A stretch of 33,200 nucleotides of DNA from Nitrospiria bacterium. Its GTDB lineage: Bacteria; Nitrospirota; Nitrospiria; SBBL01; JAADHI01. Position numbers and translations under genes: made by a program. The notes beneath the pieces are model-generated. The model was not told where the DNA came from. It searched no databases and saw only the letters and a program-made list of their open reading frames with translations. The DNA lies in the NCBI GenBank assembly GCA_945787655.1, contig CALZIJ010000047.1, forward strand, positions 1 to 33,200, given 5' to 3'. Numbering within the stretch: the first letter of the stretch is position 1; each line of letters begins with the position of its first letter. Shown here in pieces: positions 371-33,200 of this stretch.

Positions 371-547
371 ATGACCAAATCCGAGCTTATTCAACGATTG
401 GCGGAAAACCACCCACACCTTTATCATTCTAAATATGCTTCAAATCGTTACGCTGGTTCCCTCTATCTATATGCTGGTTCCCTCTATCTATATATTGTTG
501 GGGACTGCAGATACCTCAAAGTACGGGTCCATTCTTATACCCCCTAA
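371..547 (+). pseudogene. ihfB: 5' fragment of integration host factor beta gene, fused to unrelated sequence
   Basis: From ATG 371 the frame reads MTKSELIQRLAENHPHLYH, the typical N-terminus of IHF-beta, a DNA-bending histone-like protein that normally has about 95 residues. Homology stops after about codon 19 (base ~427). The frame then runs through low-complexity tyrosine/serine-rich sequence made by a tandem repeat and ends at 547. Base composition changes at the same point from GC-rich to AT-rich. Together with the rpsA tail upstream, this marks a joint between two unrelated DNAs. No functional IHF protein is expected. The ATG at 305 that opens the same frame is not needed. Confidence 0.6.
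452..493 (+). repeat. 21-bp tandem repeat, two perfect copies
   Basis: Two identical 21-bp units lie head to tail at 452-472 and 473-493, each beginning GCTGGTTCCCTC. They sit just after the point where ihfB homology is lost. They may mark replication slippage or a joining artefact. Confidence 0.85.
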
Positions 548-30194: not shown

Positions 30195-30947
30195 TTATTG
30201 CCTGACGGTGTTTTTTTCGGGCAGGGCGCTGAGGGCTTCTTTGATCACCGTCGATGTCGCCGGAATCGTATCCACGGCCGGGAATTTAATGGTTTCAATG
30301 CCTTTAACCATGCCGATGTCGCGTGCGAACCAGCTAGTGGTTTCATCCACCAGCTCGAATAATTCGTTATTTTTAGAAAGGGTCAGTTTGATTTTCATCA
30401 GTCCGGTCAATTTGAGTGCCTTTTCAAATCGGCCCGCCGGGACAGAAACCGCTTCAAAACCTTCGACGGTCACCTTGGCCATCACAGCAGCCAGTTCCTC
30501 AATCCCGTCACCGTCCAAATCCTGACCGTAAGGCACGGCAGATTTTTCAACCTGAGTGAATGATTGGCCCACCCGGAGCGGGAACTGCATCACCAAATAA
30601 GGCACCAATTTGCTTTCAAAGGGTGTCGTGGGTTCACCGCCGTGATATACCACGCTGTCATCATTTCGGGAAAAATAATGTTCCGCCGGCCCCTGGTTGG
30701 CCTGATTGCTTTCCGTAAATATTTTTACTTCGACCCCGTCTTTTCTCGTCGTTCCTTTTACGGTGGAAACATTGGTATACGTTGCAATTTTCTGTACTTT
30801 TTCATCAATCGTCCCCTCATAAGTCCAGCGCATGCCGATCTCATCGGGGAAATACCGTTCAAGTTCGGGGATGGGGCCTTCTTCGGCATTGGCGGTGAGC
30901 GTCGATGTCATCAGCAGGGCGATTACTATAATGTTCATCACTTTCAT
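30195..30947 (-). CDS. Secreted protein of unknown function
   Basis: The predicted protein is 250 residues. The N-terminus MKVMNIIVIALLMTSTLTANA is a signal peptide with likely cleavage after ANA (residue 21). The mature part starts with YFPDEIGMRWTYEG, a pattern seen in many uncharacterised periplasmic proteins. It is beta-rich and holds one EF-hand-like calcium loop, DLDGDGIEEL. No catalytic motif is recognised. It is convergent with the flavoprotein gene (22 bases apart). Confidence 0.8.
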   Translation of the reverse strand: MKVMNIIVIALLMTSTLTANAEEGPIPELERYFPDEIGMRWTYEGTIDEKVQKIATYTNVSTVKGTTRKDGVEVKIFTESNQANQGPAEHYFSRNDDSVVYHGGEPTTPFESKLVPYLVMQFPLRVGQSFTQVEKSAVPYGQDLDGDGIEELAAVMAKVTVEGFEAVSVPAGRFEKALKLTGLMKIKLTLSKNNELFELVDETTSWFARDIGMVKGIETIKFPAVDTIPATSTVIKEALSALPEKNTVRQ

Positions 30948-31236: not shown

Positions 31237-33200
31237 ATGAGCACAATCAAAATATTTCTGGCTTCGTCCTCGGAACTAAAAGCCGACCGCGAACAATTCG
31301 AGATATTCATTAACCGTAAAAACAAGGACTGGCACGACAAAGGGGTTTTTCTGGAATTGGTGATCTGGGAAGACTTTCCCGACGCCATGTCACAGACCCG
31401 TTTGCAAGATGAATACAACACCGCCCTCCGCAAATGCGATCTTTTTGTCATGTTGTTTTGCACGAAAGTCGGCCTCTACACCGCGGAGGAATTTGAAACC
31501 GCCTTCGGCGCGTTTCAGAAAAACAACACGCCCCTGATCTACACCTATTTTAAAGATGCCCCAATCACGACAGGCAGTGCGGTTGAAGAAGATATGATGA
31601 GCATGTGGACCTTTCGGAAAAAAATAAAAACGCTGGGTCATTTTGTTACCGTCTATAAAAACATCGAGGATCTACAGCTTCAATTCGGCCAACAGCTGGA
31701 CAAACTGGCTGACGCGGGCTTCATTAAACTCACAACAAACGCGCCCGCGCGTTTTGCCGAAAACCAGCATACCATCCCTCACTTGCTCACGCCGCCGCCC
31801 TTTTTGCCGGACAATTTTTTAGGGCGGGATGAAGACCTCAAGACGATTAAAAACCAGTTGTTTGATGAAAACAATCTTTTGCTGCTCGTGAACGGCGAAG
31901 GCGGCATCGGCAAAACCTCGCTGGCTTCGAAATATTTTCACGATTATCAAGGGGAATACACCCATGCCGCCTGGGTGCTGAGCGAGGGCGATATCGCCCA
32001 GGCGCTTTTGCAGGCGCTGCCGGGGCCTTTGGGGCTGCGCTTTGCGGAAAAGGCGCCCTCCGAGGCGCGCTTAGCCGAGCTGCTGCGGGTCTTGGCCGGG
32101 CTTCAAGCGCCCTGCCTTTTAGTCATCGATAACGCCAATGCGCTTGCGGACCTTGAGCGGCGCTACCTGGACCTGCGGCGCTGCCCCAATGTTCATATAT
32201 TGCTCACAAGCCGCATCACCGCCTTCGGCCACGCGCCCGCCTTTAAAATCGAGGGGCTGCCCGCGGGCGAGGCGCTTGCCCTTTTCCGTCGGCATTACCC
32301 CGCACATCTTGCCAGCGAAGATGCGCTTTTTGAAGACATTCGGGCTGCCACGGGCGGCAATACGCTCGTCATCGAATTGCTCGCAAAAACCCTGCACGCC
32401 GCCAATCAGCTCAAAACCCGCACCACCTTAAGCGGCCTGCTTTCAAACTTGCGCGAAAAGGGCCTGCTCGCCCTTGGACAGAGCCGGGCCGTATCTACCG
32501 CCTATCAAAGCCAAGGCACGCTGCGGCAGGAGAAGCCAGAGGCCATTATTTCCGCCATGTACGACCTCACCCCCTTGTCGCAGGAAGAATGCGCCCTGCT
32601 CTCTGTTTTCTCGGTTCTGCCTGCGGAAAACATCCCTTTTAACATTTTGGAAAGCCTGCTCGGCGGCGGGGACGCGCTGGAAACACCCCTGCTGTCACTC
32701 GCCCGGCAGGGCTGGGTCGAATACAACGAAAACACCCGCGCCTTCAAGTGCAGCCCGGTCGTGCAGGAAATCACAAAGAAGAAAAACCCGAAGCTTTTTG
32801 AAGACTGCCAGTCACTCATCGCCGCCTTGTCGGACAAGCTGAAATTCGAAGGGTACACAGGCCATTTACTAAATGCCAGCTATGCGGAGGCCGCGCTGTT
32901 TGCCCGTTACGGACAAAGCCTCGTGCCCCCCTTTTCTGTCGCCACCCATGAAGTCGCCGTCCTCTGTGAACGGATCGGCAATTATCACACAGCGACCGGC
33001 AATTTTCCGCAAGCCCTGCAATTTTTTGAAGACTACGAACGTCTCGAAAAAGACCTGCATAAGGCGCACCCCGACAATGTCACCTTTAAAAATAGTCTCG
33101 CCATCGCCTGCCAATTTCTCGGCAATACGCATGCAGCGCTCGGGGACCCGAAAAAGGCTCTCGGCTTTTTTGAAGACTACGAACGTCTCGGAAAAGACCT
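31237..33200 (+). CDS. STAND NTPase with TIR-like N-terminus and TPR C-terminus (partial)
   Basis: At least 654 residues; the frame has no stop and runs off the window. Residues 4-105 resemble TIR/DUF4062-type domains (IFLASSSELKADR; CDLFVMLFCTKVG; YTAEEFETAF with Glu84, 85 and 87 as possible catalytic acids). Residues ~190-460 form an NB-ARC-like NTPase: Walker A GEGGIGKTS (220-228), Walker B CLLVIDN (Asp298) and sensor ILLTSR (321-326), then winged-helix-like sequence. From ~580, TPR repeats begin with a 48-residue period. This is the layout of NLR-like proteins that sense phage proteins and trigger host death or NAD loss. ATG 31237 is the only possible start after an upstream in-frame TGA. 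Bases ~31970-32500 are notably GC-rich compared with the first 600 bases. Confidence 0.85.
   Translation, partial: MSTIKIFLASSSELKADREQFEIFINRKNKDWHDKGVFLELVIWEDFPDAMSQTRLQDEYNTALRKCDLFVMLFCTKVGLYTAEEFETAFGAFQKNNTPLIYTYFKDAPITTGSAVEEDMMSMWTFRKKIKTLGHFVTVYKNIEDLQLQFGQQLDKLADAGFIKLTTNAPARFAENQHTIPHLLTPPPFLPDNFLGRDEDLKTIKNQLFDENNLLLLVNGEGGIGKTSLASKYFHDYQGEYTHAAWVLSEGDIAQALLQALPGPLGLRFAEKAPSEARLAELLRVLAGLQAPCLLVIDNANALADLERRYLDLRRCPNVHILLTSRITAFGHAPAFKIEGLPAGEALALFRRHYPAHLASEDALFEDIRAATGGNTLVIELLAKTLHAANQLKTRTTLSGLLSNLREKGLLALGQSRAVSTAYQSQGTLRQEKPEAIISAMYDLTPLSQEECALLSVFSVLPAENIPFNILESLLGGGDALETPLLSLARQGWVEYNENTRAFKCSPVVQEITKKKNPKLFEDCQSLIAALSDKLKFEGYTGHLLNASYAEAALFARYGQSLVPPFSVATHEVAVLCERIGNYHTATGNFPQALQFFEDYERLEKDLHKAHPDNVTFKNSLAIACQFLGNTHAALGDPKKALGFFEDYERLGKD
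33022..33200 (+). repeat. 144-bp in-gene repeat encoding TPR units
   Basis: The stretch beginning TTTTTTGAAGACTACGAACG at 33022 recurs at 33166, exactly 144 bases on, with one mismatch over ~35 bases. The unit encodes FFEDYERLxKDL within a 48-residue TPR. The near-identity at DNA level points to recent duplication, and more copies probably lie beyond the window. Confidence 0.85.

What the first reader, a model, noticed from the sequence alone, without database searches (positions are those of the whole stretch)
31237..33200. NLR-like STAND protein with a TIR-like effector and freshly duplicated TPR sensor repeats
The domain order is TIR-like, NB-ARC-type NTPase, then TPR, as in bacterial and plant immune receptors. 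The Walker A, Walker B and LLTSR sensor motifs are all intact, so it should be an active ATP switch. The TPR units repeat with a 144-bp period and near-identical DNA, a pattern expected of a sensor that evolves by repeat gain and loss. The N-terminal family is short and may be an under-described effector. It is the best candidate defence system here; the partner genes, if any, lie beyond the right edge.
Basis: partly seen in the sequence, partly recalled or inferred. Interest (0 to 1): 0.72.

Follow-up and report, generated by a model that had tools for sequence, protein, structure and literature searches.

The report
Bacterial NLR with TIR-like NADase head
A horizontally acquired bacterial gene encodes an NLR-style immune receptor whose predicted NAD-destroying head belongs to the TIR-like DUF4062 superfamily (the one found in human TEP1 and NPHP3) and whose sensor is built from swappable TPR repeats; it probably kills the infected cell to stop a phage, but this has not been tested at the bench.

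Summary
The gene is real. The window ends at a contig end; a second contig (C145) overlaps it by 96 identical bases and completes an 823-aa protein: TIR-like domain (1-165), NB-ARC with winged helix (about 180-560), five 48-aa TPR units. The head is a DUF4062-like subfamily, below Pfam's cut-off but matched by profile comparison (98%, E 2e-13); its model resembles TIR and nucleoside-hydrolase folds. Invariant Glu85 aligns with the catalytic Glu of antiphage NADase KpSwz and human TEP1. The NB-ARC-TPR chassis is absent from the other 197 same-phylum genomes searched, lies between two genes that are neighbours in three congeners, and recurs in Bacteroidota and Methylovulum. In 17 of 23 chassis loci the same head is fused (6) or encoded by the adjacent upstream gene (11); two pairs sit in type I restriction operons. 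TPR units are homogenised within each protein except at coupled hypervariable positions 27/28/31, whose states recur across lineages. Best reading: a one-gene NLR that senses an unknown ligand through TPRs, oligomerises and depletes NAD+. NADase activity and antiphage role are inferred.

The parts
31237..33200 (+). NLR-like gene, first 654 codons; continues on contig C145 (L006:97-604) to a stop after 823 aa
31237..31731 (+). N-terminal TIR-like (DUF4062-like) effector domain, residues 1-165; 35 invariant columns in 27 relatives
31489..31491 (+). codon of Glu85 (KVGxYTxEEF motif), aligned with KpSwz E97 and TEP1 E1008: predicted catalytic residue
   Evidence: PMC13174449
31771..32910 (+). NB-ARC NTPase and winged-helix region (about residues 179-558), the exchangeable 'chassis'
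31894..31920 (+). Walker A, GEGGIGKTS, residues 220-228
32116..32133 (+). Walker B, LLVIDN, residues 294-299
32200..32214 (+). LLTSR (RNBS-B / sensor-like), residues 322-326
32743..32769 (+). MHD-equivalent FKCSPVVQE, residues 503-511; the usual His is replaced by Ser here and by Ser or Asn in the two chassis relatives aligned
   Evidence: assignment as MHD-equivalent is inference
32956..33099 (+). TPR unit 1 (48 aa, residues 574-621), the N-cap unit
33100..33200 (+). TPR unit 2 (residues 622-669), truncated at the contig end and completed on C145 (to L006:139); units 3, 4 and C-cap 5 at about L006:140-283, 284-427 and 428-571
33105..33200 (.). 96-base exact overlap with L006:1-96 (contig C145), the assembly junction inside the repeat array
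30195..30947 (-). left flanking gene (hypothetical, 250 aa), adjacent to the PD-(D/E)XK gene in congeners that lack the receptor

Best explanation
A single-gene bacterial NLR (STAND NB-ARC protein). The C-terminal superhelix of 48-aa TPR units binds an unknown trigger, most likely a phage protein (inferred). Binding releases autoinhibition, the NB-ARC module exchanges ADP for ATP and oligomerises as in Apaf-1 or plant TIR-NLRs (inferred from fold and motifs). This clusters the N-terminal DUF4062-like TIR-fold domains, which become NAD(P)+ hydrolases using Glu85 and drain NAD+, killing or arresting the infected cell (inferred from KpSwz and TEP1). Shown here: domain order, intact nucleotide-binding motifs, conserved putative catalytic Glu, exchangeability of effector and chassis (fused or adjacent genes), presence of the gene at a site where three congeners lack it, and concerted evolution of the TPR array with a few hypervariable positions.
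For: Domains and motifs. Head model is a five-strand beta-alpha fold; top PDB hits include plant TIR RRS1, RPS4/RRS1 and nucleoside N-glycosidases. Profile match to DUF4062 98%, E 2e-13, with E85 on the invariant Glu, the column that is E in TEP1 and the mutated Ala in the KpSwz E97A chain. [quoted passage not shown] E85 motif kept in every chassis-associated head whose motif region was found. Whole model hits Apaf-1, CED-4, RPP1, NRC. Head fused or directly upstream in 17 of 23 chassis loci, 13 of 14 in a Bacteroidota scan made with the chassis alone. Other heads on the same chassis: NNH5. Empty site in congeners; chassis in none of the other 197 same-phylum genomes searched. Two pairs inside type I RM operons. 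Repeat homogenisation plus hypervariable positions.
Against: No activity data. Human NPHP3, NWD1 and NWD2, with a similar layout, showed no NADase activity in PMC13174449, so the fold does not guarantee catalysis. The head misses Pfam's DUF4062 and TIR_2 cut-offs and finds no solved chain by sequence. TM-scores to TIR structures are modest, 0.5-0.6. The window's neighbourhood is housekeeping, and the pooled PADLOC comparison of chassis neighbours with control regions was not decisive. The head is poorly modelled in the full-length prediction.
Confidence: 0.68

Rival explanations
1. The head is a TIR-like enzyme of another kind: it makes an ADP-ribose or nucleotide-derived signal, or cleaves another nucleotide, and the real executioner is elsewhere.
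For: Foldseek also hits CMP N-glycosidase BcmB, DNPH1 and nucleoside deoxyribosyltransferases. Several canonical TIRs make signals (PMC13174449, introduction).
Against: No partner effector gene next to the insertion. The characterised DUF4062 enzymes KpSwz and TEP1 hydrolyse NAD+ to ADP-ribose; TEP1's domain made no other ADP-ribose derivatives (PMC13174449).
Confidence: 0.15
2. The head is a non-catalytic oligomerisation or recruitment module, as may hold for NPHP3 and NWD1/2, and the protein signals by assembly only.
For: Layout like NPHP3/NWD1/2, which were inactive in the assay of PMC13174449. 35 invariant positions could also reflect an interaction surface.
Against: The putative catalytic Glu is invariant in all 27 relatives and kept in the chassis-associated heads. 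Stand-alone head genes ride with very different partners (NB-ARC-TPR, NACHT, FGE-sulfatase-ATPase, TPR-only), as expected of an effector.
Confidence: 0.1
3. A STAND-type regulator of housekeeping or stress genes (MalT-like).
For: Neighbours in the window are housekeeping genes; STAND-TPR proteins include metabolic regulators (general knowledge).
Against: No DNA-binding effector domain found. Patchy distribution, empty sites in congeners, plasmid and restriction-operon locations, exchangeable heads and repeat turnover.
Confidence: 0.03
4. The protein polices something other than phage, for example plasmids, gene transfer agents, or self/non-self in multicellular consortia (allorecognition), by the same NLR mechanism.
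For: Fungal NB-ARC-TPR NLRs with internally conserved repeats and positions under positive selection are tied to non-self recognition (PMC4986451).
Against: DUF4062 protein KpSwz and bacterial STANDs such as bNACHT25 and Avs are antiphage (PMC13174449, PMC12169576).
Confidence: 0.12

Closest known systems
Swarozyc (KpSwz), bacterial DUF4062 antiphage NADase (PMC13174449; PDB 10wc, 11cq, 11cv)
   Same: Same TIR-like superfamily by profile comparison; catalytic Glu column conserved
   Different: KpSwz has helical stalks and a portal-binding HTH/winged AUX domain; here the head is fused to NB-ARC-TPR and is a distinct subfamily that misses the Pfam DUF4062 cut-off
Human NPHP3, TEP1, NWD1/2 (DUF4062-NACHT architectures)
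   Same: Same order: DUF4062-type domain, STAND NTPase, superstructure-forming C-terminus
   Different: Eukaryotic, NACHT rather than NB-ARC; NPHP3 and NWD1/2 inactive and TEP1 active in the published assay; weak NPHP3 head match (18.5 bits against cut-off 33)
Plant TIR-NLRs (RPP1, Roq1)
   Same: TIR-fold head + NB-ARC + repeats; structural hits to RPP1 and Roq1
   Different: LRR instead of TPR; canonical TIR instead of DUF4062-like head
Fungal NB-ARC/TPR NLRs with high internal repeat conservation (PMC4986451)
   Same: Homogenised TPR units, copy-number variation, few hypervariable positions
   Different: Fungal, other N-terminal domains; here the hypervariable positions 27/28/31 are mutually coupled and their states recur across lineages
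Bacterial two-gene amyloid (BASS) NLR/effector pairs (PMC7889193)
   Same: Effector gene next to NLR gene with matching tail motifs (seen in L019, L021, L022, L024, L027, L031, L046)
   Different: The window protein is fused and has no such tail; whether the tails of relatives are amyloid was not tested
AVAST (Avs) STAND defence proteins
   Same: STAND NTPase with N-terminal effector and C-terminal repeat-type sensor (general knowledge)
   Different: Only a marginal PADLOC match at the P-loop (Avs4, E 0.027)

Membership tests
STAND / NB-ARC NLR-like proteins | NB-ARC domain over curated cut-off with Walker A, Walker B and RNBS-B | tested here: met
   PF00931 37.5 bits against 23.5; motifs at 220-228, 294-299, 322-326
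STAND / NB-ARC NLR-like proteins | NBD-winged helix-repeat fold | tested here: met
   Model of 1-654, mostly pLDDT 70-90 over 200-654; top hits Apaf-1, CED-4, plant NLRs
STAND / NB-ARC NLR-like proteins | MHD motif histidine (typical, not universal) | tested here: not met
   FKCSPVVQE; Ser or Asn at the His position in all three chassis sequences aligned, so a subfamily trait; register assigned by eye
Pfam DUF4062 (PF13271) | score at or above gathering cut-off (24.7 bits) | tested here: not met
   18.0 bits, E 0.0033; all 27 relatives match only weakly at E<=0.1, best 2e-5
Pfam DUF4062 (PF13271) | homology by profile-profile comparison with conserved catalytic Glu | tested here: met
   98%, E 2e-13; E85 aligned with invariant Glu
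TIR-fold NADases | five-strand TIR-like fold | tested here: met
   Model pLDDT 82; top hits include 4c6s, 4c6t; modest TM-scores
TIR-fold NADases | NAD+ hydrolysis | not testable with these tools
   Needs biochemistry
Swarozyc | DUF4062 plus C-terminal stalk and AUX portal-binding domain | tested here: not met
   C-terminus is NB-ARC-TPR
PADLOC PDC-S60 (candidate defence protein) | full-length match to the 906-position model | tested here: not met
   Only positions 4-163 match (36.8 bits, E 3.5e-10)
FxSxx-COOH system TPR protein (NF040586) | curated cut-off of 300 bits | tested here: not met
   100.2 bits, best stretch over NB-ARC
AVAST (Avs1-5) | full-length Avs model match | tested here: not met
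   Avs4 10.8 bits against 1500
BASS-type two-gene NLR/effector pair | shared motif in effector C-terminus and NLR N-terminus | tested here: not met
   Window protein is fused, without a tail. In related split loci cognate tails match in 7 of 8 pairs (0 of 500 shuffles)

The most novel reading that the evidence does not exclude
Each TPR unit carries a three-residue 'letter' at coupled hypervariable positions 27/28/31 (for example Glu-Thr-Phe, Asp-Ala-Ser, Tyr-Asn-Glu). The same letters recur in different lineages inside species-specific, homogenised frameworks, so the sensor would be a modular read-out (a TPR recognition code) that diversifies by shuffling interchangeable units in front of an exchangeable TIR-like NADase.
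Probability: 0.2. Interest if true: 0.85.

Novelty: new variant of a known kind. Interest (0 to 1): 0.6.

Why it matters
DUF4062 was described as a TIR-like NADase family only in a 2026 preprint, whose bacterial antiphage example lacks an NLR chassis; the preprint's text as held does not mention TPRs. This gene and its relatives are a bacterial counterpart of the TEP1/NPHP3/NWD layout (DUF4062-type domain, STAND NTPase, repeats), so the question of how such receptors are switched on can be asked in a lab bacterium. The split/fused series (same head fused to, or encoded next to, the same NB-ARC-TPR chassis) suggests that head and receptor work together. The repeat array, with a homogenised frame and coupled hypervariable triads, makes a testable prediction about where specificity lies.

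Tried and rejected
Partner gene beyond the right edge: rejected. The gene ends on C145 and is followed by a convergent PD-(D/E)XK gene that all 7 other genomes of the family searched have without this receptor. Phage-borne gene: no match to the head in 50,697 phage records, and one IMG/VR contig that carries a Roc-COR fusion instead. Foreign base composition: gene GC 0.53 against 0.45-0.53 for flanking genes, uninformative. Defence-island enrichment of chassis neighbours: 71 neighbour proteins against 71 control proteins in PADLOC showed type I RM parts in the first set but also scattered methylase, helicase and RtcR-like hits in the controls, and the tool gives family tallies only, so not claimed. 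Sequence search of solved structures with the head profile: none. Promoter and terminator scan upstream: one site of each kind, expected 0.4, uninformative. Freshly duplicated near-identical repeats: replaced by older, homogenised units. GC3 of the TPR part was computed out of frame and is discarded.

Full report
1. What is there. The frame opens at ATG 31237 and runs to the window end (654 aa). The window is the whole of contig C47 of the source genome and its right edge is a contig end. A second contig, C145 (L006, 3,135 bp), begins with 96 bases identical to the window's last 96, continues the reading frame and the 144-bp repeat, and ends the gene at L006:604, giving 823 aa. The join is supported by synteny: in congeners G001, G002 and G004 the gene left of the receptor (250-aa hypothetical) and the gene right of it on C145 (PD-(D/E)XK, PF12705) are direct neighbours, and G001 also keeps the dihydrolipoamide dehydrogenase-type gene that lies left of both. 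The same comparison shows three empty sites: a gain in this lineage is the simplest reading. The next gene on C145 is convergent and belongs to the family core, so no partner gene was found.

2. The head. Residues 1-165 belong to a strongly conserved family: 27 loci in Bacteroidota, Cyanobacteria, Gammaproteobacteria, Planctomycetota, Verrucomicrobiota, Nitrospira and others (54-82% identity), 35 invariant columns. Pfam sees only sub-threshold TIR_2, NPHP3 and DUF4062; PADLOC sees the first 160 positions of candidate PDC-S60. The AF2 model (pLDDT 82) has strand-helix alternation with five strands; the best solved structures include plant TIR domains RRS1 and RPS4/RRS1, then CMP N-glycosidase and nucleoside deoxyribosyltransferases, relatives of the kind that PMC13174449 also names for DUF4062. 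I built a DUF4062 alignment from other genomes of the same phylum plus L042: profile comparison gives 98% probability, E 2e-13 over 144 columns. Window Glu85 falls on the invariant DUF4062 Glu. The same column is Glu in TEP1 (11gz) and Ala in KpSwz (10wc), whose solved construct is the E97A mutant (PMC13174449). It is invariant in the 27 relatives and present in the chassis-associated heads whose motif could be found. PMC13174449 shows that KpSwz and TEP1 hydrolyse NAD+ and that KpSwz gives abortive infection on sensing a phage portal; the same paper found NPHP3 and NWD1/2 inactive, so catalysis here remains an inference.

3. The chassis. NB-ARC, winged helix and the first TPRs share 52% identity with a gene on plasmid pHALHY02 of Haliscomenobacter, which has a different head (NNH5), and with L025 from a Bacteroidia MAG, which has the same head. 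The model of 1-654 hits Apaf-1, CED-4, RPP1 and NRC proteins. A chassis-only search found it in 1 of 198 same-phylum genomes, the source genome itself, and in 12 of 395 genomes of the phylum of G411 (Bacteroidota by the record title of L030). Across the 23 chassis loci examined the DUF4062-like head is fused in 6 (window, L025, L135, L137, L144, L141) and is the adjacent upstream gene in 11 (L145, L146, L148, L149, L150, L152, L154, L155, L158, L024, L027); in L154 a 250-aa ORF lies between. Six have another head, only a short tail, or none detected. In the Bacteroidota scan alone the association is 13 of 14; several of those genomes are close relatives, so the counts are not independent. L145 and L154 place the pair inside type I restriction operons (hsdM-hsdS-head-NLR).

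4. Related arrangements. Elsewhere the head is a stand-alone gene with a Gly/Asn-rich tail, followed by a sensor gene whose N-terminus repeats that tail: NB-ARC-TPR (L024, L027), NACHT (L019), ATPase-FGE-sulfatase (L021), TPR-only (L022, L031, L046). Cognate tails match better than all 500 shuffles in 7 of 8 pairs. This layout is that of bacterial BASS NLR/effector pairs (PMC7889193), but amyloid formation was not tested. The head is also fused to GUN4 and FGE-sulfatase in cyanobacteria, to a canonical TIR plus NB-ARC-TPR in L023, and to the C-terminus of LRR-Roc-COR proteins.

5. The sensor. Units are 48 aa; columns 1-24 follow canonical TPR numbering. I collected 73 internal units from 17 chassis proteins. 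Within a protein units differ at 29% of positions, between proteins at 52%: the frame is homogenised, while first and last units stay recognisable across species (by eye). Positions 27 and 31 vary about as much within a protein as between proteins (0.84 against 0.87; 0.80 against 0.88), as do 2, 5 and 9 nearly. In a scan of 741 column pairs with shuffles inside lineages, the three strongest couplings are 27-31 (z 8.3), 27-28 (7.0) and 28-31 (5.2). States recur across lineages: Glu-x-x-x-Phe in five, Asp-x-x-x-Ser in five, Tyr-x-x-x-Glu in six. Lineages were assigned by me from sequence similarity, not from a tree. Fungal NB-ARC-TPR NLRs show comparable homogenisation with three positions under positive selection on the concave face (PMC4986451). 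Packing between helices is the sober explanation for the coupling; a recognition code is the bold one.

6. Mechanism and status. Shown by sequence: architecture, motifs, fold similarity, head/chassis exchangeability, patchy distribution with empty sites, repeat dynamics. Inferred: ligand sensing by TPRs, ATP-driven oligomerisation, NAD+ depletion, abortive antiphage defence. The host's own neighbourhood offers no defence context; that inference rests on relatives.

Noticed in passing
L034, L035, L038, L043, L044, L050, L064; L066:4485-6492: The same DUF4062-like domain sits at the C-terminus of bacterial (LRR-)Roc-COR (Roco) proteins, once on an IMG/VR viral contig (L064); on conjugative plasmid pMB06 it is a separate gene next to LRR and COR genes.
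   Followed up: partly
L019, L021, L022, L024, L027, L031, L046: Stand-alone effector genes whose C-terminal tails match the N-terminal tails of the adjacent sensor gene, as in amyloid-signalling NLR pairs.
   Followed up: partly
L145; L154:3618-16221: Head + NLR pairs inside type I restriction-modification operons; in L154 the chassis carries a ParA-like N-terminal domain.
   Followed up: partly
L128, L129 (G003); L130 (G007): The junction between the 250-aa gene and the PD-(D/E)XK gene also differs in G003 (other genes, a transposase-like ORF, separate contigs) and G007 (an aminoacyl-tRNA-synthetase-like gene between), so it may be a variable site.
   Followed up: partly
L027:8643-9456, L150:10732-11535, L153:8816-11476: Broken copies of the system: interrupted chassis or effector frames.
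   Followed up: no
L028, L029, L033, L039, L040: Cyanobacterial fusions of the head with GUN4-like or FGE-sulfatase-like domains, two folds tied to conflict systems in PMC8195603; GUN4 confirmed by Pfam in L028, FGE-sulfatase in L039, the others judged by eye.
   Followed up: no
window 452-493: Perfect 21-bp tandem duplication between open reading frames.
   Followed up: no
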